Below are positions 15,519 through 40,787 of a stretch of DNA of 64,000 nucleotides, in pieces. Every line of letters starts with the position of its first letter. Positions within the stretch are counted from its first letter, which is position 1. The stretch lies in the IMG/VR virus record IMGVR_UViG_3300049617_000207, positions 32,015 through 96,014 of that record, one strand, 5' to 3'. The notes under the pieces were generated by a model. The model made no database searches, was not told the DNA's origin, and worked only from the letters and a program-made list of their open reading frames with translations. Made by a program: the position numbers and the translations under genes. The DNA is from a virus.

Positions 15519-15519
15519 G

Positions 15520-15912: not shown

Positions 15913-15941
15913 ATCGTACACCCTGCGCGCTGGAAAGTCAA
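15913..15941 (-). promoter_or_regulatory. GCGCGC-core promoter A
   Basis: TTGACT, 17 bases, TACGAT. GGGGCACC lies 7 bases upstream of the -35. The leader has the hairpin-plus-GCAGAAAG plan shared with promoters D, G, H and I. Confidence 0.85.
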
Positions 15942-15957
15942 TGCGACAGGTGCCCCG

Positions 15958-16044
15958 TTATCGCCGCTTCCACAGGTGGCACGTCTTCGCGTGCCAAGGT
16001 CCGGCCGGAAGCCCGTTCGCCGAGTAGCACGCACACTTGCTCAT
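15958..16044 (-). CDS. Cys/His peptide, 28 aa
   Basis: ATGA overlap with the upstream gene. CACYSANG and HAKTCH give a possible zinc site. Its stop codon TAA directly precedes the GGGGCACC box of promoter A. Confidence 0.45.
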   Translation of the reverse strand: MSKCACYSANGLPAGPWHAKTCHLWKRR

Positions 16045-16214
16045 CCGCGCGTGCCCTCGAAGCACATGCAGTCGCCGCCCGCGGCGAGTGCCCCGCACCG
16101 GCAATAGCTCCCATCGGGGTGCCGGTTCGCGTCGTAGCGGGGATCGAGGCTCGGGCGCTGCGCATCGGAGCAGTCGCAGCCCAAGGGGCGGCAGGTCGGG
16201 CACTCGTCGTCCAT
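16041..16214 (-). CDS. Cys-rich zinc protein, 57 aa
   Basis: Ten Cys in 57 residues (CPTCRPLGCDC, CRCGALAAGGDCMC), enough for two zinc sites. TAATG junction with the upstream gene. Confidence 0.65.
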   Translation of the reverse strand: MDDECPTCRPLGCDCSDAQRPSLDPRYDANRHPDGSYCRCGALAAGGDCMCFEGTRG

Positions 16215-16534
16215 TACGCGAAGACCTCGTCGCGCTCGGCGCGCTCGAAGTCCAGGAGCGCCGTATCGTGCGCGGCCTCGGCTTCGGCGGCCTCCGCCGC
16301 GTCGGCGGCGCACCGCGCGATGTGGTCGAGGCGGCGCTGCCCGAGCTTCCCGGCGAGTGCCTCCGCGATGCTCACGTTGTGCGCGTATGCGGTCCCGCTC
16401 TTGCGGCGAGCGGTGACGTTGGCGCTGCCGCTCTTGAGGATGCGCACGTGGGCGTCGGAGGCGACGGTGCCGCCGAAGTGCTCCGCCCACAGGCGGGCCA
16501 CGGCGCGGAATTGGTCGGGAGTTGGTGTTTCCAT
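16214..16534 (-). CDS. Helical protein, 106 aa, leaderless gene
   Basis: ATG lies exactly 7 bases after the -10 of promoter B, so translation begins at the first RNA base. Sequence has DQFRAVARLWAEHFGG and an Ala/Glu-rich helix at the end. No family. Confidence 0.65.
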   Translation of the reverse strand: METPTPDQFRAVARLWAEHFGGTVASDAHVRILKSGSANVTARRKSGTAYAHNVSIAEALAGKLGQRRLDHIARCAADAAEAAEAEAAHDTALLDFERAERDEVFA

Positions 16535-16540
16535 GCGCCT

Positions 16541-16569
16541 ATCGTACGCCCTGCGCGCTGGAAAGTCAA
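16541..16569 (-). promoter_or_regulatory. GCGCGC-core promoter B
   Basis: TTGACT, 17 bases, TACGAT; the box GGGGCACC starts just after the stop codon of the Uma2 gene. Predicted +1 is the A of the ATG at 16534. Confidence 0.9.
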
Positions 16570-16585
16570 TGCCGGAGGTGCCCCG

Positions 16586-17122
16586 TTACGTCACTCCGGC
16601 CTCGTCGTAGAGCGCGTCGATGTCGAGCGTGAAGTCGACGGAGTGTAAATGCACGAGCCCGGCGATTCGGTCGACATCGTAGGCAAAGTCGCCGGTCTCC
16701 GTGCGACGGTGCAGCCGCACCCACCGGCGCGTGGAGTCTACCACGAGATATTCCTGGAATTCTGCCATCGCCCGATATTCCGTGAGCTTCGGGCCGAGGT
16801 CGTCGCCCCGGTTCGGACTCATGATTTCGCACACGAGCTTACGCGGCTTGCCGTCGCAGATGACCATGAGGTCGGGGCTGCGCTCGGGGAATCGGCCGTG
16901 CTTGCCGGTACGCAGGCGCCCGGCGAGCCGCACCTTGCAGCCCGACGGCCGGAGGTGCGGGTTGAGCATCTCTAGCAGCCGCCCGGCGAGGTCTTGGTGC
17001 GCATCGCTCGGGATGCCCATATCGACGACCTGGCCGTCCACGTACTCGAAGCGGCCTTCGTGGCTCTCGGCGTACGCGAGAAATTCCTCGTAGGTAAGGG
17101 GCTTGGGCGTGGGCTCGTTCAT
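16586..17122 (-). CDS. Uma2-family (DUF820) nuclease-like protein
   Basis: 178 aa. Begins TYEEFLAYAESHEGRFEYVDGQVVDM (read in two parts) with the family's Glu-Gly-Arg and strand, then SPDLMVICDGKPRKLVCEIM, matching the PD-(D/E)xK core (D and E-x-M positions). Uma2 proteins are abundant in some bacteria and their roles are unclear; DNA cleavage is inferred from the fold. ATGA overlap with the upstream gene. A second member is at 36648-37199. Confidence 0.85.
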   Translation of the reverse strand: MNEPTPKPLTYEEFLAYAESHEGRFEYVDGQVVDMGIPSDAHQDLAGRLLEMLNPHLRPSGCKVRLAGRLRTGKHGRFPERSPDLMVICDGKPRKLVCEIMSPNRGDDLGPKLTEYRAMAEFQEYLVVDSTRRWVRLHRRTETGDFAYDVDRIAGLVHLHSVDFTLDIDALYDEAGVT

Positions 17123-17376
17123 GCGCCGAGCTTCCCGGCGTAGCAACGCGCGCCTTTGTGCGCCCGGCGAAAGGCGAGCCGCGCGGCCATCGTCGCCTCG
17201 CGCGAAACGTGCCAGGAGATGACCCGCGAGGTCGCGTTCACCGGGTTGCCGGTGCTGCTGTAGCAACGGTGCCACGCGCTCACGCCGCCCGCCTCGGCGC
17301 TCGTGGTAAGCAGCGCCCAGGACTTGCCGGACACGCGCGGAGCGCACACGCCGCAGGTGCTCGTCGCGACGGTCAT
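17119..17376 (-). CDS. Small Cys-containing protein, 85 aa
   Basis: ATGA overlaps at both ends. Starts MTVATSTCGVCAPRV; a further Cys-Tyr and a basic helical end (ARLAFRRAHKGARCYAGKLG). Unknown. Confidence 0.6.
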   Translation of the reverse strand: MTVATSTCGVCAPRVSGKSWALLTTSAEAGGVSAWHRCYSSTGNPVNATSRVISWHVSREATMAARLAFRRAHKGARCYAGKLGA

Positions 17377-17555
17377 GTCGCGTCGTCGTCCGCAGTCCGG
17401 TTCCACGAGACGAGCGGGCGGCGCCCACCGTCGTCGTCGCCGCCGTAGTAGGCGGTGTGGCGGCCGGGGTGGCCTTGCGGCTTCTCGCATGGGGCGCCCG
17501 CCTTGTGCCAGGCGGCGCAGGTCTCGGAATCGGCCGTCTCGGTCGAAGTAGTCAT
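17373..17555 (-). CDS. Small zinc-binding protein, 60 aa
   Basis: CAAWHKAGAPCEKPQGHPGR carries C, H, C and H spaced like the short zinc motif found in many phage proteins. AGAAAG lies 8 bases before the ATG. Confidence 0.6.
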   Translation of the reverse strand: MTTSTETADSETCAAWHKAGAPCEKPQGHPGRHTAYYGGDDDGGRRPLVSWNRTADDDAT

Positions 17556-17556
17556 G

Positions 17557-17769
17557 TCAGTTGCTTTCTGTCGAGTAGACGACGGTGCCGGTCTCGTGAT
17601 CGTAGACGAAGGCCGGGATGTATTCGCTCGCCGTTCCGAAGCCGAGTGACCGGCGCTTGCGAGCCTCGACCTGGGCGCGTCCGAGGGCGCTGCCGAGGTC
17701 GGCATACATCGAGCGGGCGACCTTGATTTCGGGGGCACCGACGAGATTCACGGAGTAGCGTTTGTTCAT
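17557..17769 (-). CDS. Small protein, 70 aa, leaderless gene
   Basis: The ATG coincides with the predicted first base from promoter C. NLVGAPEIKVARSMYADLGS and YIPAFVYDHETGTVVY read as an alpha/beta fold. Unknown. Confidence 0.65.
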   Translation of the reverse strand: MNKRYSVNLVGAPEIKVARSMYADLGSALGRAQVEARKRRSLGFGTASEYIPAFVYDHETGTVVYSTESN

Positions 17770-17775
17770 GCGCCC

Positions 17776-17804
17776 ATGCTACACCCTGCGCGCTGAAAAG
17801 TCAA
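17776..17804 (-). promoter_or_regulatory. GCGCGC-core promoter C
   Basis: TTGACT, 17 bases, TAGCAT; GGGGCACC upstream begins one base after the preceding stop codon. +1 falls on the ATG at 17769. Confidence 0.9.
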
Positions 17805-17820
17805 TGCCGGAGGTGCCCCG

Positions 17821-18423
17821 TTACGCCTCGTCGAGCAACGCACCCATCCGTCGGGCCTCCGCAGCGATGAATTGCAGCGCCATCGCGTCGTCGGAGAAGT
17901 CGTCCAAGAAGGCCGTGATCGAGGCTTTCACCTCGTCGCTCACGCCGACCACGATCCCAACGCTTGCGAGCTTGCGGATGAGGTCCTTGGGCGCGACGTC
18001 GGGGAATAGCTCCATCGCCCGCGGCAGGCCGCCTGTCGTGTACCCGAGCGCGAGCTTGACCGCCTGCGCGTTGCTCCACGCCTCGCGCTGCTTACGCTGC
18101 CGCGGCGGATCGGCCGAGCCCGATGGTCCCGGCGGCGGCGGGGGCGTCTCCGGCGGCGGCGCGGCGCGGCCGTTGGTCGACGGTTGGCGGATCGTGTTTC
18201 TCACGGCCTCGGGCTCCTCTCGCGCGGGCGGCGGGGTCTCGGGGGCGTCGCGGCTCTCGACGTCGTCGCCGGGCTCCGGGGGCGCCCAATACGGCCGCTC
18301 CGCCGGAGGCGGCACGCGCTCATCATCCCGCTGCGGCGCCCCGCCCACGATTCCCCGCAGGAAGACGGGCACGGTATCGCCGCGCCTGGCCAGTTGCAGG
18401 CCGGGGATCGGCGTGCTAGACAC
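17821..18423 (-). CDS. Pro-rich protein with helical domain, 200 aa
   Basis: Residues 1-110 are Pro/Glu/Arg-rich and disordered; 115-200 are helical (AVKLALGYTTGGLPRAMELF, DEVKASITAFLDDFSDDAMA). GTG start without a clear ribosome site. Unknown. Confidence 0.6.
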   Translation of the reverse strand: MSSTPIPGLQLARRGDTVPVFLRGIVGGAPQRDDERVPPPAERPYWAPPEPGDDVESRDAPETPPPAREEPEAVRNTIRQPSTNGRAAPPPETPPPPPGPSGSADPPRQRKQREAWSNAQAVKLALGYTTGGLPRAMELFPDVAPKDLIRKLASVGIVVGVSDEVKASITAFLDDFSDDAMALQFIAAEARRMGALLDEA

Positions 18424-18448
18424 GTGGAGCCCGCTTGCTCATACGGCG

Positions 18449-18477
18449 TGCTTACGGCGTGCGCGCAAATAAGTCCC
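18449..18477 (-). promoter_or_regulatory. Degenerate GCGCGC-core promoter
   Basis: GGGACT, 17 bases with GCGCGC in the usual place, TAAGCA. It follows the stop codon TAA by 3 bases as at promoters B and C, but the GGTGCCCC box is missing. It overlaps a TACGGCGTGC direct repeat. Confidence 0.4.
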
Positions 18478-19021
18478 CCGTTAGCGGCTTTTGCGCCACC
18501 CGGATCGCAGCCAGCGCCCAAGCTCGGGCCACGTCCGCACGCCGTCGCTCCCGATGGCCGTCGCGATAAACCACACGCCGAAGAGGACGGTCGCAAACCT
18601 GGACCGTCCGCACAACGTCCTGCCCGAGCTTCCTGCGTAGGCGCCGCACGTGGACGTCAACCGTCCGCTCGTCGGCGACGACGTCGCCCCAAAGCTCGTC
18701 CATAAGCTCGTCGCGCGAGAACGCGCGCTCCGGGTTGCGCGCGAGATGCACGAAGAGGGCGTACTCCTTGGGCTTCAGCGCCACCCGCACGTGCCCGAAG
18801 CGCACCGTGTGCGCCACGGTGTCGACGACGATCCGGCCGACGCGTAGCTCGTCGCTCTGCGCCCGGCGTGCGCTACGCAAGGCGCACACGATCCGCGCGA
18901 CGCCCTCGCGCAAGTCCGGCTCGTCGGGGGGAACGGGATCGTGCCCGTCCATCCCCTCTTCCGCGTAGTAGGCGACGGCCTCGGCCATCGCGGGCGTGAG
19001 CTTAACAACGACCTCCTTCAC
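18452..19021 (-). CDS. PhoB/OmpR-type DNA-binding protein without receiver domain
   Basis: 189 aa. The C-terminal half holds a winged helix of the response-regulator type: VALKPKEYALFVHLA, RAFSRDELMDELWGD, ERTVDVHVRRLRRKLG. The N-terminal 75 residues are helical and acidic and do not match a receiver. After RTV the usual wing ending (GxGY) is replaced by QVCDRPLRRVVYRDG. The last 48 codons are also read in another frame by a membrane peptide. GTGA overlap with the upstream gene sets the start. Likely a phage transcription regulator. Confidence 0.8.
   Translation of the reverse strand: MKEVVVKLTPAMAEAVAYYAEEGMDGHDPVPPDEPDLREGVARIVCALRSARRAQSDELRVGRIVVDTVAHTVRFGHVRVALKPKEYALFVHLARNPERAFSRDELMDELWGDVVADERTVDVHVRRLRRKLGQDVVRTVQVCDRPLRRVVYRDGHRERRRADVARAWALAAIRVAQKPLTGDLFARTP
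18481..18615 (-). CDS. Membrane peptide nested in the regulator gene, 44 aa
   Basis: TTG start after GGGCAGGAC. Membrane helix RFATVLFGVWFIATAIGSDG then a basic Trp-rich tail. It reads the +1 frame of the regulator gene; its stop is followed at once by the degenerate promoter, as for other genes here. Confidence 0.45.
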   Translation of the reverse strand: MCGRSRFATVLFGVWFIATAIGSDGVRTWPELGRWLRSGWRKSR

Positions 19022-20140: not shown

Positions 20141-20190
20141 GTGGGTCGTGTCCTTTGGGCGCATCTCGCGCCCGGTGTCGGGGTGCCTTC

Positions 20191-20219
20191 ATGCTACGCT
20201 TTGCGCGCTGGAAAGTCAA
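20191..20219 (-). promoter_or_regulatory. GCGCGC-core promoter D
   Basis: TTGACT, 17 bases, TAGCAT, with AGGTGCCCC 7 bases upstream. The leader folds GGGCGC against GCGCCC just before AAAGGA. Confidence 0.85.
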
Positions 20220-20276
20220 GCGCATCGGGGCACCTCTCCGTCACTCGTCGCATACGAGGGCACGAGGGGAAAAGAA

Positions 20277-20303: not shown

Positions 20304-20331
20304 GGGGGTGGGATCGGGCCGCCTGGCCCGG

Positions 20332-20484
20332 TTAGAAGACGTCGGTGTCGAGCGCCCGGCGCGCGTCCGCGTAGGCCGCGAACGCGACCTCGGCGCCGCG
20401 CGCCTCGCGGCAGAATCGCTCGCCGCTCTTGGGATCGTAGGCGTGGCCGCAAGCCGGGAAGGTCGGGCACTCGTACGCGTACCA
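20332..20484 (-). CDS. Zinc-ribbon reading frame without a start codon
   Basis: The frame YECPTFPACGHAYDPKSGER then FCREARGAEVAFAAYADARRAL looks clearly coding (zinc site, natural composition), yet no ATG, GTG or TTG lies between the upstream in-frame stop and the motif. Promoter E would start RNA near 20477. A GTG at 20470 is in the neighbouring frame and would fit if one C of the next CCC were surplus. Limits given are those of the open frame. Confidence 0.45.
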   Translation of the reverse strand, partial: WYAYECPTFPACGHAYDPKSGERFCREARGAEVAFAAYADARRALDTDVF

Positions 20485-20508
20485 TGATACGCCCTGCGCG
20501 CTGGAAAG

Positions 20509-20512
<4 letters not shown>
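20484..20512 (-). promoter_or_regulatory. GCGCGC-core promoter E
   Basis: TTGACT, 17 bases, TATCAT; GTGCCCC 6 bases upstream. Confidence 0.85.
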
Positions 20513-21222
<710 letters not shown>

Positions 21223-21226
<4 letters not shown>

Positions 21227-21701: not shown

Positions 21702-21817
21702 TTACGCACCGGCCGCGGCGCGCCTGGCGCATAGCCCCCGGCGAGCACCTCGCGCAGTTGCGCGATAGCCGTGGCGCCCGTGATGTGCTTTCGATGTGTG
21801 CGTCCTTTAGGCAGCAT
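21698..21817 (-). pseudogene. Truncated paralogue of the 23056-23340 gene
   Basis: Last 30 codons (HITGATAIAQLREVLAGG, YAPGAPRPVRK) closely resemble the end of the 94-aa protein on the other side of TnpB (HISGSVAISQLRDVLSGG). The N-terminal part has been replaced by the end of the TnpB element. A 39-codon frame from ATG 21817 remains. Confidence 0.6.
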
Positions 21818-23030
21818 TTTCACGCCTCCCGAGCCGGGTGCCCCCCGGCGATAACTCACTTAAAAGCGCCAACTGCGCTCGCCCTAGGATATTCCGCGCG
21901 GCGTTCACGTCGGCGTGGTCGCGATGACCACACGCTACGCAAACGAACCGCACGCCATCCCGATTCTCCGGCGCGACGTGCGCGCACTCGGCGCACGTCC
22001 GCGACGTATTCCTTGGATTCACGCTAACGACTACGCGAGCGGCACATGCTGCCTTCTCGCGGATTAACGTGACCAATGTTCCCCATGCAACATCCCCGAT
22101 GCTACGATTAAGGCTCGACTTCGCCGCGACGTTCGTGCCCGGCTTCTCGACTGTACCTCTCGCCGACCGCATCATGTTTCGCACGGTGAGAGCTTCGACC
22201 GCGATGCCGTCATACGCGTTCACGATCCGGCGCGAAAGTTTATGCAGCGCGTCACGTCGTGCGTTCGCCTCGCGCTCCCGAGCCCGCGCCAATCGTCCTA
22301 CCGCCGCCGCCCGCGCCGGGTCCTTCCAATTCACACAACGGCCCAGGCTGTCCGTTGCGGTACGCTTGGCGACAACGCGCGAGGCGACCGCCACGCGCTC
22401 CGCTCGCTTGGCGAGATGACGCGGATTCGTGACAAGTTCCCCGTCCGAAGTGGCGGCCAACACGGTCACGCCAACGTCAAGTCCGACGACGGCGCCGGTG
22501 CGCGGGAGCGGCTCAACCTCGCGGTTGCACTCGAATATCGCGTGCCAACGCCCATTCTTCTCGACCACGAAGGCACGACCGAACGCGGGAATGGGCCGCC
22601 CCTTCCGCATGGTGATCGTGCCAACGCCGGGGACTCGCACTTTCGTCTGCGCCGCGTTGAATTGGAAGTAGCGGTCGCCGTGCGAAACCTCGATTTGATT
22701 CCAGCGTGAGGCTGCACGATAGCGCGGGAACCCACGCCCCTTGCCTTCCTTAACCCGGCGGAAGAACGCCGCGAAGGCGAGGTCGAGCCGGTGGAGAACC
22801 GCGTCCTGGCACTCCCGATGAATCGCCTTTACGCCAGGATCGTCGGCCCGTAACGCGGTCAACTCTGCAGACTGCATCTTTACGGACACCGTAACGCGGC
22901 GCATCCGGTACGCGTCTTTTCGCTCTTGCAGCGCCGCGTTGTAAAGATTCCTAGTGGCGTGCAGGACGTGCCAAAGTCTTCGCTCCTGTGAAGCGGACGG
23001 GTATAAGCGAACCTTGTGCATCCAGCGCAT
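21807..23030 (-). CDS. tnpB: TnpB RNA-guided nuclease (IS605/IS1341 group)
   Basis: 407 aa from ATG 23030. RuvC residues D185 (GLDVGVTV), E279 (AVEALTVRNM) and D374 (HADVNAARN); zinc ribbon C346-C349 and C364-C367. TnpB uses an RNA from its own 3' end to cut DNA next to a short motif and keep the element in place. All catalytic residues are present. No TnpA lies nearby, so the element depends on a transposase elsewhere. A TATACT -10 and GGTAGAG precede the start. The frame extends upstream but without conserved sequence. Confidence 0.93.
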   Translation of the reverse strand: MRWMHKVRLYPSASQERRLWHVLHATRNLYNAALQERKDAYRMRRVTVSVKMQSAELTALRADDPGVKAIHRECQDAVLHRLDLAFAAFFRRVKEGKGRGFPRYRAASRWNQIEVSHGDRYFQFNAAQTKVRVPGVGTITMRKGRPIPAFGRAFVVEKNGRWHAIFECNREVEPLPRTGAVVGLDVGVTVLAATSDGELVTNPRHLAKRAERVAVASRVVAKRTATDSLGRCVNWKDPARAAAVGRLARAREREANARRDALHKLSRRIVNAYDGIAVEALTVRNMMRSARGTVEKPGTNVAAKSSLNRSIGDVAWGTLVTLIREKAACAARVVVSVNPRNTSRTCAECAHVAPENRDGVRFVCVACGHRDHADVNAARNILGRAQLALLSELSPGGTRLGRRENAA

Positions 23031-23055
23031 ATTCTCTACCACTAAGTATAACACA

Positions 23056-23340
23056 CTAGCGTCGCGGGCGGGGGGCGCCAGGTGCGTAGCCGCCCGACAG
23101 GACATCTCGTAACTGCGAGATGGCGACCGAGCCGGAAATGTGCTCGGGCATCCGCTGCCAATGCGTCACGAGGAGCTTCGCCTGCTCGACGATCCGCGCG
23201 TCGGCCTGCGAGAAGAGCATCGTGTCGAGCCCGGCGAGGATCGCCCCGCGAAGCTCCGGCTGCTGAATCCGCTCCGCGACCGTGCGCGCCGTAGCAATCG
23301 CCTGCTGCGCCGGGGTCGGCTCGACCGTCATCTTACTCAT
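23056..23340 (-). CDS. Helical protein, 94 aa
   Basis: Starts MSKMTVEPTPAQQAI. Mostly helical, ending SQLRDVLSGGYAPGAPRPRR. Intact member of the pair whose other copy was cut by TnpB. Unknown. Confidence 0.65.
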   Translation of the reverse strand: MSKMTVEPTPAQQAIATARTVAERIQQPELRGAILAGLDTMLFSQADARIVEQAKLLVTHWQRMPEHISGSVAISQLRDVLSGGYAPGAPRPRR

Positions 23341-23396
23341 GGGCGCCGCTTCGCGTCTCGCGTACGCCGTCCCTACGGCCAGGGCACCCCGTTACG

Positions 23397-23425
23397 TTGT
23401 TTTTCGCGCGACGGCGTGGTATGCT
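23397..23425 (+). promoter_or_regulatory. Promoter of ssb (GCGCGC group)
   Basis: TTGTTT, 17 bases with CGCGCG, TATGCT. GGGCACCCC lies just upstream of the -35. Confidence 0.75.
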
Positions 23426-23451: not shown

Positions 23452-23883
23452 TTGCCTAGTTTCAACCACATAACGCTCGTGGGCAATCTCACGCGCGACC
23501 CCGAGATTCGCTACGTCGACGGCGGCGGCAAAGCCGTTACCAAGTTTTCGCTTGCCATAAATCGCAAGACCAAGGGCGCCGACGAAACCATGTTTATCGA
23601 CATCGTCGCATGGGATCGCCTGGGCGAAGTCTGCAATCAGTATCTCAAGAAGGGCGACCCCGCGCTCATCTCTGGACGCCTCGCCATTCGCAAGTACGAC
23701 GACAAGGATGGCAATAAACGCACGGCCGTCGAGGTCGTCGCAAGCGACATGCAGATGCTCGGAACCAAACGCGATGCCGCGGCACCGGCACCGGCACGTA
23801 GCGGCGCAGGCGGCGGATACGCACCGGCGAGCGGCGGCCGCACGGAAGAGGAAGAGGATGCTTTCGACGACATTCCCTTCTAG
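23452..23883 (+). CDS. ssb: Single-stranded DNA-binding protein
   Basis: 143 aa. OB-fold N-terminus (FNHITLVGNLTRDPEIRYV, KFSLAINRKTKG, FIDIVAWDRLGE, KGDPALISGRL), Gly/Ala-rich linker and the acidic tail DDIPF that binds replication partners. TTG start with AAGGAGGG 8 bases upstream. It protects single strands during phage replication and recombination. Confidence 0.97.
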   Translation: MPSFNHITLVGNLTRDPEIRYVDGGGKAVTKFSLAINRKTKGADETMFIDIVAWDRLGEVCNQYLKKGDPALISGRLAIRKYDDKDGNKRTAVEVVASDMQMLGTKRDAAAPAPARSGAGGGYAPASGGRTEEEEDAFDDIPF

Positions 23884-23914
23884 CGCGCTGAAAAGCCCAA
23901 GGAGGGGCGCACCG

Positions 23915-24430
23915 ATGCAACCGCTAACCGAAAACCCTATGCCGACCAAAGTGCGCGTGAGCGCCGAACCGAAGTTTACCCAATGGTTATGGTTCCAGCG
24001 AGACCGCTCGGACTCCGTGGGCCGCGTCGCACGCTTTGCGTTCGCCGACGTCGGCCCCGGCGGGCGCGAGCGCCCCTGCTGGCCGCACGCCTCCAAGACC
24101 GTCGGGCACTTCGTCATGCACCTGCGCACCGAGCACCCGAAGGACCCCGACGCGCCGACCGAGATAGTCGTGCGCGACGCGTTCTCGGAGTTTCGCGAGT
24201 TCCTCGCCTCGGGCGGGAAGGTCCCCTTGCGACACGGCGGCGTCCGCGCGACCGTCGCCAACGTCAACCGGCACCGCGGGTACGTGCTCCCCGGCGATAC
24301 CATCGAAAAGATCAAAGAGCTTGCCGAGCACGGCGACGTGAAGCAAGGCAAGCTTCTTGAGCGGCTCGTGGCCGCCGAGCACCGGCGGGTCTTCGGCAAG
24401 CCGAAACCAAGCGAGGCCGTGCCGTCTTGA
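23915..24430 (+). CDS. YozE/SAM-like domain protein, 171 aa
   Basis: Ribosome site AAGGAGGGG 7 bases before ATG 23915. FTQWLWFQRDRSDSVGRVAR and the helices after it resemble the YozE SAM-like fold; the C-terminal half (DTIEKIKELAEHGDVKQGKL) is helical. Follows ssb by 31 bases. Role unknown; its TGA overlaps the next promoter. Confidence 0.6.
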   Translation: MQPLTENPMPTKVRVSAEPKFTQWLWFQRDRSDSVGRVARFAFADVGPGGRERPCWPHASKTVGHFVMHLRTEHPKDPDAPTEIVVRDAFSEFREFLASGGKVPLRHGGVRATVANVNRHRGYVLPGDTIEKIKELAEHGDVKQGKLLERLVAAEHRRVFGKPKPSEAVPS

Positions 24431-24455
24431 CCTTTTCTGCGCGCTAAAGTAGTAT
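24427..24455 (+). promoter_or_regulatory. GCGCGC-core promoter N
   Basis: TTGACC (overlapping the previous stop), 17 bases with TGCGCGC, TAGTAT. RNA would start about 4 bases before the ATG at 24466. Confidence 0.75.
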
Positions 24456-24465: not shown

Positions 24466-24720
24466 ATGCCATCCCCAAAGCGAATCGCCTCCGGCGTGAT
24501 GGGCCGCCCTCGGACTCCCGAGACCGAGCGGCTCGTCGCGTACGGCCTGCACATCACGCCCGACAAGAAGAAGAAGCTCGTCGAGGTGAAGGACTTCGAG
24601 GGCGTCTCCATCCGCGAATGGATCGAGACGCAGATCGAACGCGCCTGGGTGAGCATGCAAGAACGCAAAGCCGAAGAGCGCGCCGACAAGAAGCTCGGCC
24701 GCCAACGGATCGCAAGCTAA
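24466..24720 (+). CDS. Small DNA-binding-like protein, 84 aa
   Basis: GRPRTPETERLVAYGLHITP and KKKKLVEVKDFEGVSIREWI look like a ribbon-helix-helix or short helical DNA-binding protein. The ATG at 24454 lies inside the -10, so 24466 is used. Confidence 0.6.
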   Translation: MPSPKRIASGVMGRPRTPETERLVAYGLHITPDKKKKLVEVKDFEGVSIREWIETQIERAWVSMQERKAEERADKKLGRQRIAS

Positions 24721-30799: not shown

Positions 30800-30828
30800 A
30801 TGATACCATATAGCGCGCCGCAAGTCAA
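30800..30828 (-). promoter_or_regulatory. GCGCGC-core promoter K
   Basis: TTGACT, 17 bases, TATCAT; GGTGCCCC 7 bases upstream. Leader of about 13 bases with GGAGG. Confidence 0.9.
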
Positions 30829-30879
30829 ATGATGCGGGGCACCGCTCCGACTGTTTTCCCGCGCCTGGGGCGCCGTGTC

Positions 30880-31077
30880 CTACACGCGGGCAGCCACTTT
30901 TAGGATGCGGTGCGCGTTTAACTGAAAGCCGACCGCGGCCTCGCTGACACGCTCGCCAAACCGGCTATTGAAACCGGCCGTCACTTCGCGCAGCGTCATG
31001 GACGGGTAGTTGTCGCGCAGATAGGAGATGCGTTCGCCATCCGTGGGACCCCACCGTATTTGAGGAGTTCTTCGCAT
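30880..31077 (-). CDS. Helix-turn-helix-like protein, 65 aa
   Basis: RISYLRDNYPSMTLREVTAG and FGERVSEAAVGFQLNAHRIL match the short DNA-binding domain found at the front of some phage HNH proteins. Here it stands alone. Confidence 0.6.
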   Translation of the reverse strand: MRRTPQIRWGPTDGERISYLRDNYPSMTLREVTAGFNSRFGERVSEAAVGFQLNAHRILKVAARV

Positions 31078-31167
31078 GGACGAAGATCGTTCGTGCTAAA
31101 GTCTAGCTCCGCCTGGTTATCGGGCCGCCCGCGCCGTTAGTTAGTTAGTGCGGTGCCCCGGTTCACC

Positions 31168-31196
31168 TTGCATTTCGCGCGCTACTCTGTTAGGAT
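31168..31196 (+). promoter_or_regulatory. GCGCGC-core promoter L
   Basis: TTGCAT, 17 bases with CGCGCGC, TAGGAT; GGTGCCCC upstream. +1 falls next to the ATG at 31204. Confidence 0.8.
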
Positions 31197-31203: not shown

Positions 31204-31773
31204 ATGATGACCCTACCCGCTACCGTCGACGACGCGCACCGTAAAGACGCACTCCGGCAAACCCTGCGCGCACTCGTGGCCGCAGGCGACACCGCCTCCG
31301 TGAAAGAGATAGGCAAAGAAGCCTACGCCACGTGTGCTCGCCTGGCAAACGAGATGCGTCCGCACAAAGACACGCTTGACGTCGTGCAAGACGTCATTTT
31401 AGAGCTTCTCGTCAATGATGGCCGCGAAGCCGTCAACGATCCCGACTTCGTGATCGCCCTCGAAGAGAAGAAGAGCGCGCGGCCGATAACGGACCAGGCG
31501 GCGCTCTACGACGCGCTCCACGCCCTCACCGTCGACGGCGAGCCGATTCCCGAGGAGCTTCTACGTGAAGCCGCCTACATCGACTTGCCGCCGCCGCCGC
31601 TCCCGGCCAAAGTCACGAATCTCACAAAGATAAAGCCCTTAATCAAACGCTTCGGCAAGCCTATCCAAGACGCTATCGACGCATGCGTCTCGTATTCACC
31701 AAGCCCGCGGCGCCTGATATTCCGCCCGAAAGAAAAACATGCTGGAAACCCAATTAACGCCCTTACTCACTAA
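31204..31773 (+). CDS. Helical protein of the recombination operon, 189 aa
   Basis: ATG at the expected RNA start, hence leaderless. Helical throughout (DALRQTLRALVAAGDTASVK, DVVQDVILELLVNDGRE), Pro patch near 150, basic C-terminus. It overlaps the ERF gene by 35 bases. Unknown. Confidence 0.65.
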   Translation: MMTLPATVDDAHRKDALRQTLRALVAAGDTASVKEIGKEAYATCARLANEMRPHKDTLDVVQDVILELLVNDGREAVNDPDFVIALEEKKSARPITDQAALYDALHALTVDGEPIPEELLREAAYIDLPPPPLPAKVTNLTKIKPLIKRFGKPIQDAIDACVSYSPSPRRLIFRPKEKHAGNPINALTH

Positions 31774-32527
31774 CGCCCTCGTCTCGCCCCGCCACTCCGA
31801 CGTCCACACGAAAATCCGCGCCGTCTGCGATGCCGTGGGCAACATGAGCAAAGAGAGCCAAGGCCCCGGCTATAAATTCGTGTCCTACGATTCGACGATG
31901 CAAGCCATTCGGCCGCACCTCTCCGCGCATCGGCTGCGCATTAAATTCTCGGAAGTCTCGTGCAGCGTCGACCCGAGCCTTAAAACCGGGAGCGGGAAGC
32001 CCGCGGTCGGTGCGCTCGTAAAGATCGCGCTCTACGTCATCGACCTCGACACAGGCGAATTCGATACGGTCGAAGCGTCGGGCTACTCGCTCGACGTCGG
32101 CGACAAGGCGGTCGCGCAAGCCATCACGATTGGCAAAAAGTATTGCCTCTTCGACGCCTTCGAGATTTCGACGTCGGGCGGCTCCAACGCCGTCGGCGGC
32201 GCAGCGAACGGCGCGAGCGATGATCCAGACGGGCGGCCCACCAAGAACGTCCGCGACGACGCGATGCGCAACGTGACGCCGCCCGCAGAGCGCGGGACCG
32301 AAGCCGCGCCGCCGGGCATGGTCGTGCAGATTCGCCGGACCCTCGCGCGACTCGTCGCCGCGGGGCAGGGCGGAGCGACCGAGGCCGCCGTGCTCGACCG
32401 GCACGCAAAGGGGAAGGCCAAGCTCGAAGACACGAATTTCGCGCAGGCCCAGGCTATCGACCGGGCGCTTACGAAATTCGAGCGCGGGCTGCGAGCGGCC
32501 AAGCCCACAGAGCGCACCGCCGCGTAA
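31739..32527 (+). CDS. erf: ERF-family single-strand annealing protein
   Basis: 262 aa. GYKFVSYDSTMQAIRPHLSA, LVKIALYVIDLDTGEF and the DKAVAQAITIGKKYCLFDAF stretch are the ERF core. These ring-forming proteins anneal complementary strands in phage recombination with SSB-coated DNA. Ala/Gly-rich linker, then a helical end. Confidence 0.88.
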   Translation: MLETQLTPLLTNALVSPRHSDVHTKIRAVCDAVGNMSKESQGPGYKFVSYDSTMQAIRPHLSAHRLRIKFSEVSCSVDPSLKTGSGKPAVGALVKIALYVIDLDTGEFDTVEASGYSLDVGDKAVAQAITIGKKYCLFDAFEISTSGGSNAVGGAANGASDDPDGRPTKNVRDDAMRNVTPPAERGTEAAPPGMVVQIRRTLARLVAAGQGGATEAAVLDRHAKGKAKLEDTNFAQAQAIDRALTKFERGLRAAKPTERTAA

Positions 32528-32543
32528 CGCGAGGTCTTCACGG

Positions 32544-32696
32544 ATGAAGCGAGTCTTCGCGGCGCTCGATGCGCTGCTCTTCGGCCCTGGCGAGCCCTTC
32601 ACGCCGGGGCCGCGCTGGCTCGACGTCGGCCTCGCGCTGCTGGCCGCGATCCCACTCTGCGCGCTGCTCGGCCTCGCGGTCTTACTGCGCCCTTAA
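32544..32696 (+). CDS. Small membrane protein, 50 aa
   Basis: One long hydrophobic helix (LDVGLALLAAIPLCALLGLA) near the C-terminus. 16 bases after the ERF stop. Unknown. Confidence 0.5.
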   Translation: MKRVFAALDALLFGPGEPFTPGPRWLDVGLALLAAIPLCALLGLAVLLRP

Positions 32697-33083
32697 GCTC
32701 GCCTGTTGCGTCCCGCCGCGGATCGGCCTAGCATGAGAGCCCATTTGTAAAGCCGCACGGATGCGCGCGGAGTGACATCACGAACGGGGCGGTGCATAAA
32801 GCGCCGCCCCGTTCGCCCCACCCCGACAAAGAGATAGGCCGCGATGATACTAGCACGGATGCTCCTCGCCGTCGATAAGCGGCCGACCTGCTGCTCGCAG
32901 GACACACTTTTTTGCGCGCCGAAAAGGTGGGCAACCCGTCTCGCACGACGACCCCGAGACAAAATCAAAGAGCCGCCTCGGTCTCTACCCGTTGCGGCTC
33001 ACGAAACCTCGAATCCCAACGCGCTCTTCACTTCACGAAGGGCCTCGATCCACACCCAAACACTCACGAAAGGACGCGGATAC
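32697..33083. other. Untranslated region with hairpin
   Basis: No convincing gene on either strand. A near-perfect hairpin (32781-32815; CGAACGGGGCGG against CCGCCCCGTTCG, AT loop) may be a terminator, attenuator or small RNA. A TTTTTTGCGCGC tract near 32910 recalls the promoter core but has no -10. Confidence 0.4.
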
Positions 33084-33194
33084 GTGTCCCGACTTCCCTT
33101 TTGCACGAAAGGCAGAGACGTGTCTAATTTAACATACCCACCTGGGCTTCGGCAAGCCCCTCGCCTGCTCGTATCCGGCGAGGCGGGCCGATGA
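33084..33194 (+). CDS. Possible short peptide, 36 aa
   Basis: GTG after GAAAGGA; the stop overlaps the next ATG (ATGA), so it may serve as a leader peptide for the replication gene. Composition is unremarkable. Confidence 0.35.
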   Translation: MSRLPFCTKGRDVSNLTYPPGLRQAPRLLVSGEAGR

Positions 33195-34303
33195 CCGAGA
33201 TAGCCCCCTGGTTCAAGTTCTACACCGAAGACTTCTGGAACAGCGCCGACGTGCAGGAGATGGGCGTCTACCACGCAGGCGCCTACCTGCGGCTCCTGTC
33301 GTACCAATGGGAGCACGGCTCGATCCCGACGGACCTGCACCGCCTGGCGGGCGTCCTGCGGGCCTCCCAGGCCGACGCGGCGGCGTCCTGGGCGCTCATG
33401 CGTCAATGCTTCGTGCCGGTGCCTGGCGCCCCGGATCGGGCCGTCAACGTGCGGATCGAGGAGGAGCGCGCGCACGCCTATGATCGCAGCGAGCGGCTCC
33501 GCCAACGCGCGACCCGCGGCGGCGAGGCGAAGGCGCGCAAGAGCCGAGAGGCCCTCAAAACCCGACTGCTGGCCGAGGCCGCGGCGCACGTCGAGCGAGA
33601 AAGAGGAAGGTCTACCGTAAGCACGGCCGTTTCAAGCCGCGCGACGACTGAAGCCGAGACCGGGACGGACGCCGAGGCGCCACCCACGCACGAAAGAGGA
33701 GTCGAAGCGGAAAGAAGGTGTGCTACAAGCACCGATTTCGGTGGCGAAAACGCTGCTAAAAGCACGACAGAGCATATAGAGCAAGGTACTCCCTACGGTC
33801 GTACCTCAGAAGACTCGTCACTTCGTTCCTCGTCGCCGGGTGCTGACGCACCGACGGCGGCGAGCGGTGAGGGGGACGGATCGGCGAAGGAGCCGGAGGA
33901 CCGACCACTCCTCGATCCGCCGGTAACGCCACAGGCCAAGCGGAAAGACCCGCGGCTCGAACGGACGCCGGACGACCTCTTGGCCTACGCCGTGCTCGAA
34001 GCGACCTGGCCGCTCATCGCCAAACAGGTGCCCGACCTCGTCGATACCCCGAAGCGGTGGCGCTCGAAAAATAAGGCCGGGGCACTCGCGCTCGCGCGGA
34101 AGATGACCCCGGAGCAGGCCGCCGGGATGCTCACGTTCGCGTACCAGGACCCGGAAGCGTCGCAGTTCTACGGCGCGCTCACCCGGCTCGACAAGCTCGG
34201 CGACGCGATTCCCCGGCTCGTCGCCCTCAAGGTGCAACGGGATCGGGGTGGGCGCCGCGGGCAGGCGGCGGTCGGTCGGACGCACGGAGCCCTCATCGGG
34301 TGA
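33191..34303 (+). CDS. DUF1376-type replication protein
   Basis: 370 aa. PWFKFYTEDFWNSADVQEMG and GAYLRLLSYQWEHGSIPTDL belong to DUF1376 (YdaU-like), found beside phage helicase genes and thought to help origin or helicase loading. A disordered Ser/Thr/Glu-rich centre (140-250) leads to a helical C-terminus (MTPEQAAGMLTFAYQDPEAS). GTGA overlap with the primase-helicase. Confidence 0.8.
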   Translation: MTEIAPWFKFYTEDFWNSADVQEMGVYHAGAYLRLLSYQWEHGSIPTDLHRLAGVLRASQADAAASWALMRQCFVPVPGAPDRAVNVRIEEERAHAYDRSERLRQRATRGGEAKARKSREALKTRLLAEAAAHVERERGRSTVSTAVSSRATTEAETGTDAEAPPTHERGVEAERRCATSTDFGGENAAKSTTEHIEQGTPYGRTSEDSSLRSSSPGADAPTAASGEGDGSAKEPEDRPLLDPPVTPQAKRKDPRLERTPDDLLAYAVLEATWPLIAKQVPDLVDTPKRWRSKNKAGALALARKMTPEQAAGMLTFAYQDPEASQFYGALTRLDKLGDAIPRLVALKVQRDRGGRRGQAAVGRTHGALIG

Positions 34304-36138
34304 GCCGGACGACCGGCTTCGACCAACCGATACCGTCGGTCGCCGAGACCTACCTGCGGCTCACCGGCATCGACCCGCGTAGCTCGACGATCCATCCGGC
34401 CGCCCACACCGTTGCCGTGCGGTGCGTGTCCGCCGCGAACCATCGGCACGGCGATGCCAGCGCGAGCTTGCATATCCACCTCGACAAAGACGTGTGGGTG
34501 TGCCGCGTCTGCACCGATGCCGGGAAGCAAATGGGCGGCCAATCGCTCGACCTCGTCGTCCACGCGGGGCAGGCCAAGGATCGCAGCGACGCGCTCGCCT
34601 GGCTCGTGCCACCGGAACCAAAGCGCACGCGGCGCCCGCCGCCGCCGGTGAACGAGCGCCGGATCGCCGCGCGCTACGCCTACGAGGACGAGAATCGTAC
34701 GCTCCTGTACGAAGTGATCCGCTACGAGTGGGACGTGCGCGAGGACGACGGCACGACGTGGACCGACAAGACCTTCTCGCAGCGCGCGCCGCTGCCCGAA
34801 GGCCGGTGGGCCAATAAGCTCGACGGCGTGCGCCGTGTGCCGTATCACTACCCCGAGATGATCGTTCTTGCGCTCGACGAGAGCCGCACGCTCTACATCA
34901 CCGAAGGCGAGAAGGACGTCGATACGGCGCTCTCGGTCGGCCTCGCGGCGACGACGAACGCGGGCGGCGCGGCGTGGGCGTGGTCGGCGGAATTCCTGGC
35001 GTGTTTTCAAGGCGTGCAGAAAGTCGTCGTGATCGGCGACAACGACGAGCCGGGCCGGGCGGCTGCCATCCGGCGCGCGGACCTCCTCGCGGACATCGTC
35101 GGCGAGGTGTGGCTCGTCGAAGCAATGCCGCAGGTGCCCGAGAAAGGCGACCTCTCGGATTGGGTCGCCGCGTATCGCAAGAGCACGCCCGACGCGTCAC
35201 CCGCACAAGTGTCGATGAAGCTCCGCACGATCCTTGCGGAATTCGCCACGAAGGTCACGCCCGAAGTCGACGACGGCAGCGCGCGCGCGTGGGAATTCTC
35301 GACGCTGCACTTCAACATTCTCGCGACCCAAAAACCCCCGGCGCCCGCACCGGCCACGGGCTTCCGGCGCATCGACACGGAGATAGAAGGGCTACACGCC
35401 GGGCAGACGACGGTCTACGCCGCGCGCACGGGACACGGGAAGACGGCCGCGCTAGAGCACACCGTTATTGCGAATTGGGAGCAGTTTAAGATTCTGCTGT
35501 TCGCGCTCGAAATGGGCGCGAAGCGGATGCACGACCGGCTTGTCTCGCGCGCGCAGGCGATGCGGCTCAAGGACTACCGCAACGCGATGCGGCCCGACAC
35601 CGTGCTCGACAAAGAGTGGTACGCGCGAAAGAAGTTGCGGATCGTCGGCAAGACCCGAAAGGCAACCGTCGATAACATGATCGAGCAGATTGAGCTATAC
35701 CGGCCGGACATCGTCGCTATCGACCACTTGCGCCACATCCCCGGATGGTACGACCTCACCGGCAAGAAGCGCGGCGACATTGCGCCGGTGGACATCATGG
35801 ATCGGCTCATGAGCACGGCCTCGAAGATGGGGCACCACAATATCCTGCTTAGTCAAATTAACCGCGAGGGCGACGGGAAGCGGCCGGAGCTATCGCACTT
35901 GCGCGACTCGGGAGCGGTCGAAGAAATGGCGGATAACGTCATCATTCTGCACCGGCCCTACAAAACCGTCGACGCGCCGCGCACCTCGCTCACGGAGGAC
36001 GACCTCATGGAAGCGATCCTGCGCAAGACGCGCGAAGGAGCCGAGGTGATCGCGCACATGGAATTCATCGGCGACCTCATGGCGCTGCAGGCACCGACGC
36101 CCGAGACGCTCGACCATTTTACGCGGTGCTGCCGGTGA
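34300..36138 (+). CDS. Primase-helicase (CHC2, TOPRIM, DnaB-like)
   Basis: 612 aa, a T7 gp4-like layout. Zinc finger C42, H48/H50, C68, C71; TOPRIM with TEGEKD (201-206) and GDNDEPGR (246-253); RecA-like motor with Walker A ARTGHGKTA (375-383), VAIDHLRHIPG as Walker B and LLSQINREGD as the sensor. It would lay primers and unwind DNA at the fork. GTG start coupled to the previous gene. Confidence 0.92.
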   Translation: MSRTTGFDQPIPSVAETYLRLTGIDPRSSTIHPAAHTVAVRCVSAANHRHGDASASLHIHLDKDVWVCRVCTDAGKQMGGQSLDLVVHAGQAKDRSDALAWLVPPEPKRTRRPPPPVNERRIAARYAYEDENRTLLYEVIRYEWDVREDDGTTWTDKTFSQRAPLPEGRWANKLDGVRRVPYHYPEMIVLALDESRTLYITEGEKDVDTALSVGLAATTNAGGAAWAWSAEFLACFQGVQKVVVIGDNDEPGRAAAIRRADLLADIVGEVWLVEAMPQVPEKGDLSDWVAAYRKSTPDASPAQVSMKLRTILAEFATKVTPEVDDGSARAWEFSTLHFNILATQKPPAPAPATGFRRIDTEIEGLHAGQTTVYAARTGHGKTAALEHTVIANWEQFKILLFALEMGAKRMHDRLVSRAQAMRLKDYRNAMRPDTVLDKEWYARKKLRIVGKTRKATVDNMIEQIELYRPDIVAIDHLRHIPGWYDLTGKKRGDIAPVDIMDRLMSTASKMGHHNILLSQINREGDGKRPELSHLRDSGAVEEMADNVIILHRPYKTVDAPRTSLTEDDLMEAILRKTREGAEVIAHMEFIGDLMALQAPTPETLDHFTRCCR

Positions 36139-36141
36139 CGG

Positions 36142-37719: not shown

Positions 37720-37725
37720 TCCCCC

Positions 37726-37754
37726 AGGATACGCCCTGCGCGCTGGAAAGTCAA
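37726..37754 (-). promoter_or_regulatory. GCGCGC-core promoter F
   Basis: TTGACT, 17 bases, TATCCT; GGTGCCCC 6 bases upstream. +1 on the GTG. Confidence 0.9.
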
Positions 37755-37771
37755 GGAGCCGGGGCACCGTG

Positions 37772-38541: not shown

Positions 38542-38578
38542 TTGTCGGGAATTCTTTTCTGCGGGCTAGGCCCGCGAC

Positions 38579-38869
38579 TCAATTAGGATACACCTTGCGC
38601 GCTAGAAAGTCAACAGAGGGGGGCACCTCCGGCGGTTGGCGCAGGCGCTCGGCGGCGCGCTCGCGCACATCCTCGCCGACCTCCCAAAAGTGGCGCAGGG
38701 CGCACTCGCTCGCGCGGGCGGCCCGTAGCTCCGCGCGGTCGTGCTCGATCCACGAGAGCGCCGTGAAGCCCAGGATCGCCGCGATAGCGATGCCGCAGAC
38801 GAGGTGCGGGCCGGTGAGCGCCGTGACGAGCGCGACGATGGTCGAGATTGAGGCAAGGTTACGGAACAT
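38579..38869 (-). CDS. Membrane protein, 96 aa
   Basis: Two hydrophobic stretches (ISTIVALVTALTG, LVCGIAIAAILGFTALSWI), then a charged helix. Its last codons run through promoter G, an example of coding and promoter sharing DNA. Starts 11 bases inside the upstream gene. Confidence 0.6.
   Translation of the reverse strand: MFRNLASISTIVALVTALTGPHLVCGIAIAAILGFTALSWIEHDRAELRAARASECALRHFWEVGEDVRERAAERLRQPPEVPPSVDFLARKVYPN
38585..38613 (-). promoter_or_regulatory. GCGCGC-core promoter G
   Basis: TTGACT, 17 bases, TATCCT; GGTGCCCC 6 bases upstream. The leader has GCGGGC paired with GCCCGC, then AGAAAAG. Confidence 0.85.
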
Positions 38870-39502: not shown

Positions 39503-39783
39503 GTCGGCGTCACGTTCTTGGGCTGCGGGCCGCGTTCGCCGCGGGTGATGGCCTCGATAGCGTCGGAGCGCGCACCGGCGCCCGGCTCGCGCCGCTCGAT
39601 TTCGGCGAGCACAAGGTTACGCTCGGCGACGAGCTTCATTGCGACCCGCGCCCACGACGTCGGGGAGCCTGTGCCGATGCGGTCGGCGGCGTTGGCGAAT
39701 TCGATGCCACCGGCCGCACACCGCGCGAGGTTGTAAAGCTCGGCGGTTTTCACGTTGCGGTAGCCGTTAAGCGCGGGCTTCAT
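39499..39783 (-). CDS. Helical phage protein, 94 aa
   Basis: NVKTAELYNLARCAAGGIEF, VAMKLVAERNLVLAEIERRE. ATGA overlap with the frameshifted gene upstream. Unknown. Confidence 0.6.
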   Translation of the reverse strand: MKPALNGYRNVKTAELYNLARCAAGGIEFANAADRIGTGSPTSWARVAMKLVAERNLVLAEIERREPGAGARSDAIEAITRGERGPQPKNVTPT

Positions 39784-39958
39784 TTCGTCACGCTCTTGGA
39801 TGCGAACGCGCCGAAGAGCTTCGCGCAGTCGCTCCCGACTTCGTGCGAGCCGCAGTCGCCTGCGTCCGATTCGTAGGCGGCCTCGTCGCCCGGATGCAGC
39901 ACGACGCCGCCGGGAAGCCCTTGCGGATCATCGGCATGGTGCGCAGCGTCGCGGCCAT
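39780..39958 (-). pseudogene. Short zinc-type protein with apparent frameshift
   Basis: ATG at a TAATG junction starts MAATLRTMPMIRKGFP; the natural continuation GGVVLHPGDEAAYESDAGDC and GSHEVGSDCAKLFGAF is in the neighbouring frame. The span is one base short of a multiple of three; a missing C in the CCC run (39912-39914) would repair it. GTG inside the second frame could still give a 40-aa product. Confidence 0.5.
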
Positions 39959-40140
39959 TATGTCGGCCACGTTCCGGCGAGCTTGCGGACGTCGACGAGG
40001 CAACGGACGATGCGCGTGCCGTTGTCGTTGAGGATGTAGCCGGTGGAGCCGCCGTAGGGGCCGGGGATGGCCTGTAGGCCGACGAGGGCAATGCCCTTGC
40101 GGGCGAGACCCTTGATGGTGGCTTTCGAGAGGTCGTTCAC
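39958..40140 (-). CDS. Small phage protein, 60 aa
   Basis: GTG with GCAGAAAG 8 bases upstream. GPYGGSTGYILNDNGTRIVR is a motif seen in short phage proteins of unknown function. Confidence 0.65.
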   Translation of the reverse strand: MNDLSKATIKGLARKGIALVGLQAIPGPYGGSTGYILNDNGTRIVRCLVDVRKLAGTWPT

Positions 40141-40178
40141 GGGTGATGCTTTCTGCGGGCCAGGCCCGCGACTCCCTA

Positions 40179-40207
40179 ACAATACACCCTGCGCGCTGAA
40201 AAGTCAA
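40179..40207 (-). promoter_or_regulatory. GCGCGC-core promoter H
   Basis: TTGACT, 17 bases, TATTGT; GGTGCCC upstream. Leader hairpin GCGGGCC-T-GGCCCGC followed by AGAAAG. Confidence 0.85.
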
Positions 40208-40235
40208 CGCGCAAGGGCACCTGTTTGGGCCGAGC

Positions 40236-40664
40236 CTAGAAGGCCACCCGCTTGCGGCAGACCGGGCCGATGCCCGCGAGGACCGACTTCGAGGCGGTCA
40301 ACGTGCGACCGCAGATAACGCACTCGCCGAGCAGCGCGGAGATGTCCGCCGCCTGCTCCAAGGTGAGGCGGTCGGCTTCCCGCACCGAGTAAATCGCGCC
40401 GGACACGTACACCCACTCCGTCCCCTTGAGGACCTTGGCGTAGAGGTGGCCGCTGCCCTTAGCGGTCTGCGCGCGGTACACGGTGCCGTCGGCGGCGCGG
40501 AAGGCGCCGGGGCCTTCGGGAGCGCGGTTGGCGAATTCGTCCGCGAGGTCATTTGCGCGGTCGGTGGTCTCGACGTAGAGCGCCAGCATCGCTTCGGTAA
40601 GGTTGTCGATGTCGGCGGCCGAGGCGTTCTTCTGATAGTCGGCTGCGAAGATTGCGGTGGGCAT
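40236..40664 (-). CDS. DUF6011-like protein, 142 aa
   Basis: C-terminal CVICGRTLTASKSVLAGIGP then VC is the DUF6011 zinc knuckle; N-terminal helical part and a beta sheet (GTVYRAQTAKGSGHLYAKVL). Expressed from promoter I. Confidence 0.75.
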   Translation of the reverse strand: MPTAIFAADYQKNASAADIDNLTEAMLALYVETTDRANDLADEFANRAPEGPGAFRAADGTVYRAQTAKGSGHLYAKVLKGTEWVYVSGAIYSVREADRLTLEQAADISALLGECVICGRTLTASKSVLAGIGPVCRKRVAF

Positions 40665-40712
40665 GTCGGGGTGTCTCGTTTCTGCGGCGGCTGCCGCGTT
40701 AGGTGATGCCTT

Positions 40713-40741
40713 ACAATAGCACGGGCGCGCCGTTAAGTCAA
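40713..40741 (-). promoter_or_regulatory. GCGCGC-core promoter I
   Basis: TTGACT, 17 bases with GGCGCGCC, TATTGT. The leader has GCGGC-A-GCCGC, then CGCAGAAA. Shares its upstream box with promoter J. Confidence 0.85.
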
Positions 40742-40758
40742 GTGAATCAGGGCACCGC

Positions 40759-40787
40759 TTGACACGTTTTGCAGCGCGTGATATAGT
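40759..40787 (+). promoter_or_regulatory. Promoter J, divergent from I
   Basis: TTGACA, 17 bases with AGCGCG, TATAGT, nearly the sigma70 consensus. The box GGGCACC (40750-40756) lies between the two -35 elements. Confidence 0.85.

What the first reader, a model, noticed from the sequence alone, without database searches (positions are those of the whole stretch)
15913..40787. Family of near-identical promoters with a GCGCGC core in the spacer
Seen: at least eleven sites (starting at 15913, 16541, 17776, 20191, 20484, 30800, 37726, 38585, 40179, 40713 on -, and 40759, 31168, 24427, 23397 on +) with TTGACN or close, exactly 17 bases, and TANNNT; in most the spacer reads TTCCAGCGCGCAGGGCG or close. 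The spacer is normally free to drift, so conservation there points to a bound factor. Inference: a phage-coded regulator (perhaps the PhoB-like or ribbon-helix-helix protein) reads GCGCGC and controls a regulon of small accessory genes, ssb, the helicase and the recombination operon.
Basis: partly seen in the sequence, partly recalled or inferred. Interest (0 to 1): 0.85.

Follow-up and report, generated by a model that had tools for sequence, protein, structure and literature searches.

The report
Two-part operators at phage promoters
Nearly every recognisable promoter of this unclassified tailed phage carries the same pair of DNA marks a fixed 24-25 bases apart, one in the middle of the promoter and one just upstream, which looks like the docking pair for a single regulator, most likely a repressor that can silence the non-structural genes together.

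Summary
All 14 listed sites exist with exactly 17-bp spacers; a matrix search of the whole 96-kb virus record adds five (four left of the window, one in the late operon). Spacer identity is 0.83 among the nine best sites, against 0.38 in an unrelated phage with 12 near-identical promoters. The flanks sit at background, so recent copying does not explain the family.

An imperfectly palindromic octamer (GGTGCCCC or GGGGCACC) lies 6-7 nt before the -35 box. Octamer and GCGCG are spaced 25-26 bp start to start (24-25 bp centre to centre). That spacing holds where the -35 box slides (40759), is poor (31168, 23397), or where the unit is reversed against its promoter: at 11087 the octamer is in the spacer and GCGCGC upstream, driving a 60-aa putative HTH gene. 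The pair is therefore independent of the sigma hexamers.

Best reading: a dimeric, probably phage-coded repressor binds both sites and blocks RNA polymerase at early/accessory promoters. This works like other multi-operator phage repressor regulons. The protein is not identified, and the PhoB-like or RHH assignment is not supported. No other phage in the searched collections has the element.

The parts
15913..15956 (-). promoter plus operator pair (octamer 15949-15956; GCGCGC in spacer)
16541..16584 (-). promoter plus operator pair; ATG 7 nt after the -10 box (leaderless gene 16214-16534)
17776..17819 (-). promoter plus operator pair; leaderless gene 17557-17769; probably a recent duplicate of 16541
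20191..20234 (-). promoter plus operator pair; operon of four or five genes that includes the PhoB-like gene 18452-19021
20484..20526 (-). promoter plus operator pair (octamer AGTGCCCC)
30800..30843 (-). promoter plus operator pair upstream of the helicase operon; GCGCGC shifted 1 bp towards -35
37726..37768 (-). promoter plus operator pair; leaderless GTG start
38585..38627 (-). promoter plus operator pair; leader with hairpin and GCAGAAA
40179..40221 (-). promoter plus operator pair; leader with hairpin and GCAGAAA
40713..40756 (-). divergent promoter plus operator pair sharing its octamer (40749-40756) with the + promoter 40759
40749..40787 (+). divergent promoter (TTGACA 40759); -35 box only 2 nt from the octamer, yet octamer-GCGCG spacing is still 25 bp
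31152..31196 (+). promoter (TTGCAT) plus operator pair at 25 bp; drives the recombination/replication genes 31204-36138
31130..31159 (-). operator pair on the other side of the same octamer (GCGCG-octamer-GCGCG triple); weak promoter CTAACT-17-GATAAC; small ORF 30880-31077 downstream
23381..23425 (+). ssb promoter (TTGTTT) with operator pair at 25 bp
24427..24455 (+). promoter with T-tract and GCGCGC but no octamer; drives the RHH-like gene 24466-24720
23884..23913 (-). possible operator pair without promoter between ssb and the next gene (octamer with one mismatch; overlaps a ribosome-binding site, may be chance)
11074..11118 (-). reversed unit: promoter TGGACT-17-TATACT with the octamer in its spacer and GCGCGC upstream
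10881..11063 (-). 60-aa putative HTH protein driven by the reversed unit; leading candidate for a self-regulated repressor
   Evidence: position; family matches only E 0.05-0.09; no relatives
24466..24720 (+). 84-aa protein read by eye as ribbon-helix-helix; candidate regulator
   Evidence: no family match, pLDDT 62
18452..19021 (-). orphan PhoB/OmpR-type winged-helix protein; candidate regulator, less likely

Best explanation
Each unit is a two-site operator for one dimeric DNA-binding protein. Site 1 is the imperfect palindrome GGKGCMCC, centred near -46; site 2 is (T-tract)-AGCGCGCA, centred near -21 in the -35/-10 spacer; their centres are 24-25 bp apart. Two dimers binding together would cover the promoter and shut out host RNA polymerase, so one repressor could silence most promoters of the non-structural region at once. 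Shown by sequence: the sites, their fixed spacing, their independence from the sigma hexamers, the one reversed copy, and the set of genes downstream. Inferred: that one protein reads both sites, that it represses, that it is phage-coded (best candidate the 60-aa gene 10881-11063), and that it serves lysogeny (a parA gene suggests a plasmid-like prophage) or early shut-off.
For: Octamer-GCGCG distance peaks at 25-26 bp: 22 pairs, against about 1.7 per distance elsewhere and at most 12 in 40 Markov nulls. With the strong promoters removed, exact octamers still pair at 25 bp (4, against 0.1 per other distance), and intergenic octamers with up to one mismatch 7 against 0.25. The T-tract recurs in the seven non-standard units (4.7 T in 9 nt, against 1.56; 0 of 100,000 resamples). 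Gap and flanks are at background identity (0.28-0.30), core 0.81. Control phage spacers 0.38, here 0.83. One reversed unit at a putative HTH gene; 0 such in 200 nulls. Near-consensus -35 and optimal 17-bp spacing need no activator, and a factor in the spacer should block polymerase. parA has other repeats and no unit. An activator needed at nearly all promoters would have nothing to start its own synthesis.
Against: No protein is shown to bind. No related phage with the element was found, so there is no comparative test. Similarity of the two sites (shared NGNGCNCN) could be chance. Some members lack a good octamer (24427; record 24511, 27429, 28876, 11703). No integrase was found and lysogeny is unproven. 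-10 boxes are only 4/6 in most sites, which leaves room for an activator.
Confidence: 0.55

Rival explanations
1. The pair is an activator site: a host, virion or phage protein binds octamer and spacer and recruits or remodels RNA polymerase at the phage promoters.
For: Fixed position near -46 and -21 relative to the start; most -10 boxes are poor (4/6); nearly all promoters carry it.
Against: Spacers are already 17 bp, whereas spacer-bound activators of the MerR type act on 19-20 bp spacers (established knowledge); the -35 box slides 4-5 bp against the unit at 40759; one unit is reversed; a phage-made activator would need an exempt promoter.
Confidence: 0.2
2. Two proteins share the regulon: one reads the octamer, another reads T-tract-GCGCGC.
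For: Several promoters keep GCGCGC but have a poor or missing octamer (24427; record 11703, 24511, 27429, 28876).
Against: Rigid 25-26 bp spacing even without strong promoters; shared octamer flanked on both sides; reversed unit.
Confidence: 0.12
3. The conserved spacer is ordinary promoter architecture of the unknown host's polymerase, not a regulator site.
For: Nearly all phage promoters have it.
Against: A specific form of the motif hits only 4 of about 85,000 species genomes, once each, in unrelated clostridial or unnamed MAGs; the octamer-GCGCG distance, not the distance to the hexamers, is the conserved quantity.
Confidence: 0.08
4. Recently copied promoter cassettes: conservation by descent only.
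For: 16541 and 17776 are near-identical upstream and probably a recent duplication.
Against: Across the ten best sites the bases between octamer and -35, and both flanks, are at background identity while the blocks are 0.54 and 0.81; the octamer occurs in both orientations.
Confidence: 0.05

Closest known systems
SPbeta repeated element (SPBRE) and its repressor MrpR/YopR (PMC10516654)
   Same: One repressor reads a conserved element repeated in many promoter regions of one prophage; the element was found in silico long before the protein.
   Different: SPBRE is a single 15-bp motif; here two sites 24-25 bp apart, one inside the promoter spacer. No MrpR-like (tyrosine-recombinase-fold) protein was seen in the family scans.
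Cluster A mycobacteriophage repressor with operators and stoperators (PMC6550527, PMC9283540)
   Same: 20-30 dispersed repressor sites in one genome; some members encode parABS instead of an integrase.
   Different: Those are 13-bp asymmetric sites bound by a monomer, mostly not in promoters; here almost all are in promoters and the sites are near-palindromic and paired.
phiC31 conserved inverted repeats (own knowledge, not retrieved)
   Same: Many near-identical repressor sites at early promoters.
   Different: Different sequence and geometry; no homologous repressor tested or found.
Lambda OR1-OR2-OR3 (own knowledge)
   Same: Operator centres 23-24 bp apart, one overlapping the promoter, and a shared middle operator between divergent promoters, as at 40749-40756.
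   Different: Lambda has one such cluster per side; here about 15 to 20 units. Operator sequence unrelated; no CI-like protein found.
Cluster K SAS/ESAS repeats (PMC3203893; abstract level only)
   Same: Repeated short motifs upstream of small phage genes.
   Different: From own knowledge, SAS is tied to ribosome-binding sites; the motif here sits in the promoter.

Membership tests
Multi-operator phage repressor regulon (SPBRE, stoperator, CIR kind) | Conserved site repeated many times at early promoters of one phage | tested here: met
   (that the promoters are early is inferred from gene content)
Multi-operator phage repressor regulon (SPBRE, stoperator, CIR kind) | A phage-coded repressor that binds the sites | not testable with these tools
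   Candidates only (10881-11063, 24466-24720, 18452-19021, record 31927-32430)
Multi-operator phage repressor regulon (SPBRE, stoperator, CIR kind) | Temperate life style | tested here: inconclusive
   ParA present; no integrase seen in the family scans
Cluster A stoperators | 13-bp asymmetric sites mostly outside promoters, oriented with transcription | tested here: not met
   Near-palindromic octamer used in both orientations, nearly all sites in promoters
PhoB/OmpR regulon | Direct-repeat (pho-box-like) sites replacing the -35 box | tested here: not met
   Sites are near-palindromic and a good -35 box is present
ParA-partner RHH (ParG/omega-like) global repressor | Same sites at the promoter of its own par operon | tested here: not met
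   parA upstream region has other repeats (GTATCCTCG) and no unit
MerR-type spacer activator | 19-20 bp promoter spacer | tested here: not met
   17 bp at all listed promoters

The most novel reading that the evidence does not exclude
A very small (about 60 aa) phage-coded HTH protein of no known family binds lambda-OR-like two-site operators placed at nearly every non-structural promoter of a parA-bearing, possibly plasmid-like prophage, and controls its own gene through the same unit in reverse, making the whole early genome one switch.
Probability: 0.15. Interest if true: 0.65.

Novelty: new variant of a known kind. Interest (0 to 1): 0.5.

Why it matters
Control sites that cover nearly all promoters of a phage with no known relatives give a direct handle on its life-cycle switch and, through the site, on its unknown regulator. 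It also shows how a fixed-spacing test, with the promoters themselves removed, separates a regulator site from promoter sequence in a single genome without relatives.

Tried and rejected
Relatives sharing the element: megablast and tblastn of phages, viral contigs by three patterns and five protein queries; pattern hits were single and mostly in coding sequence, and loci with DHH or DUF932 relatives lacked the element. One genome contigs pattern scan gave four chance-like hits. L005 looked like a second family, but only TTGACTT and the -10 are shared, so it became the control. Structure models of two candidate regulators were too poor to use. Leader hairpins recur in several units but are not more stable than shuffles, so no claim is made. 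Rfam: no match. GCGCGC as a generally over-represented word: rejected. ParA-adjacent RHH as the regulator: disfavoured.

Full report
Observation. The window is bases 32015-96014 of a 96,014-bp virus record; the left part was read as L001 and L002. The record encodes a tail sheath, baseplate wedge, portal, head protease, major head protein and large terminase, so it is a contractile-tailed phage, with no close relative found in the phage collection. The pattern TTGACN6GCGCGCN6TANNNT is found 11 times in the record and 0 times as reversed control. A matrix search finds four more members on the + strand left of the window (record positions 22207, 24511, 27429, 28876) and one at 11703 on the - strand inside the late operon. 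Of 19 intergenic promoter-like matches, 17 are family members.

Not copying, not composition. In the ten best sites the bases between octamer and -35 (identity 0.28) and the far upstream (0.29) and downstream (0.30) flanks are at the background of a 66% GC genome (about 0.28), while octamer (0.54) and core (0.81) are not. Only 16541 and 17776 look like a recent duplication. A different phage (L005) with 12 near-identical TTGACTT promoters has spacer identity 0.38, against 0.83 for the nine best sites here and 0.66 for 14. So spacers do drift in other promoter families.

The second site. GGTGCCCC or GGGGCACC lies 6-7 nt before TTGAC. These two are reverse complements, so the site is GGKGCMCC, read in either direction. 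Start-to-start distance from octamer (up to one mismatch) to GCGCG peaks at 25 and 26 bp, 22 pairs, about 1.7 per distance elsewhere. After removing 14 strong promoters, exact octamers still pair at 25 bp four times (0.1 per other distance) and intergenic octamers with up to one mismatch seven times (0.25 per other distance). These seven also share a T-tract before GCGCG (4.7 T of 9, background 1.56, none of 100,000 resamples as high). Selection of these units used octamer and GCGCG, not the T-tract. One of the seven (23913) overlaps a ribosome-binding site and may be chance.

Independence from sigma. At 40759 the -35 box is 2 nt from the octamer instead of 6-7, yet the 25-bp pair is kept. The octamer at 40749-40756 serves divergent promoters. 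Octamers at 31152 and at record 22193 also have GCGCG on the opposite side at 25 bp. At 11087 the unit is turned round: on the - strand GCGCGC, then TGGACT-17-TATACT with GGTGCCCC in the spacer, then the ATG of a 60-aa putative HTH gene (10881-11063).

Regulon. Units precede DUF932/CsrA genes, ssb, the helicase operon, the annealing-protein/primase-helicase operon, two Uma2 genes, the orphan PhoB-like gene and many small genes. No unit with a recognisable promoter precedes the structural operon, although an octamer-GCGCG pair (record 22171-22200) faces it, and one octamer-less family member (record 11703) lies inside it; parA has its own different repeats. Three promoters place ATG or GTG 7 nt after the -10, suggesting leaderless mRNAs, and this sets the start point used to place the sites near -46 and -21.

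Mechanism. A protein sitting in the spacer of a 17-bp promoter with a near-consensus -35 should block polymerase. Centres 24-25 bp apart match cooperating dimers as at lambda OR (own knowledge). A repressor of nearly all non-structural promoters would maintain a parA-bearing, plasmid-like prophage or shut off early genes. Repression, single-protein binding and phage origin are inferences. An activator (0.2) and two proteins (0.12) remain open.

Regulator candidates. 10881-11063 is favoured by position only (family matches E 0.05-0.09; no relatives). 24466-24720 is RHH-like by eye (no family match; pLDDT 62). 18452-19021 is a true Trans_reg_C protein in a regulated operon, but that family reads direct repeats. 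Record 31927-32430 has a weak HTH match.

Comparison. It works like SPBRE/MrpR (PMC10516654) and cluster A operators/stoperators (PMC6550527), but the paired, promoter-embedded geometry differs and no homologous repressor was found; it is not filed as a member of either. 

Noticed in passing
record 23621-23812 (L002:3621-3812, left of the window): Phage-encoded CsrA (Pfam E 2e-26), in the operon of a family promoter (record 22207).
   Followed up: partly
record about 27463-27620 (L002:7463-7620): Family promoter at record 27429 is followed by a strongly folded stretch (z -3.56) with a terminator-like hairpin and several GGA motifs, and no clear gene: a possible noncoding RNA, perhaps related to the phage CsrA.
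   Followed up: partly
8381-9884 -: DNA methyltransferase gene split over two frames (8772-9884 and 8381-8875): a frameshift or sequencing error.
   Followed up: no
13311-14460 - and 14473-14561: ParA gene with an adjacent RHH-like gene and upstream repeats GTATCCTCG: a likely partition module, suggesting a plasmid-like prophage.
   Followed up: partly
21807-23105 -: TnpB-like (IS200/IS605) gene; nearest plasmid-borne relatives about 38-40% identical in Arthrobacter, Streptomyces and Deinococcus.
   Followed up: no
record 11728-18630 -: 2300-aa protein with at least two ParB-like nuclease stretches; looks like a polyvalent injected phage protein.
   Followed up: no
15849-15905, 38545-38577, 40140-40170, 40664-40705 (all -): Leaders of four units share a short hairpin, GCAGAAA and a CCCGACA or similar stretch before the start codon; stability not above shuffles.
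   Followed up: partly
L005 (IMGVR_UViG_3300021399_000107): Unrelated 165-kb phage with 12 near-identical TTGACTT...TATAATA promoters in 7 kb and a conserved upstream TTTAC/TTAAC stretch.
   Followed up: partly
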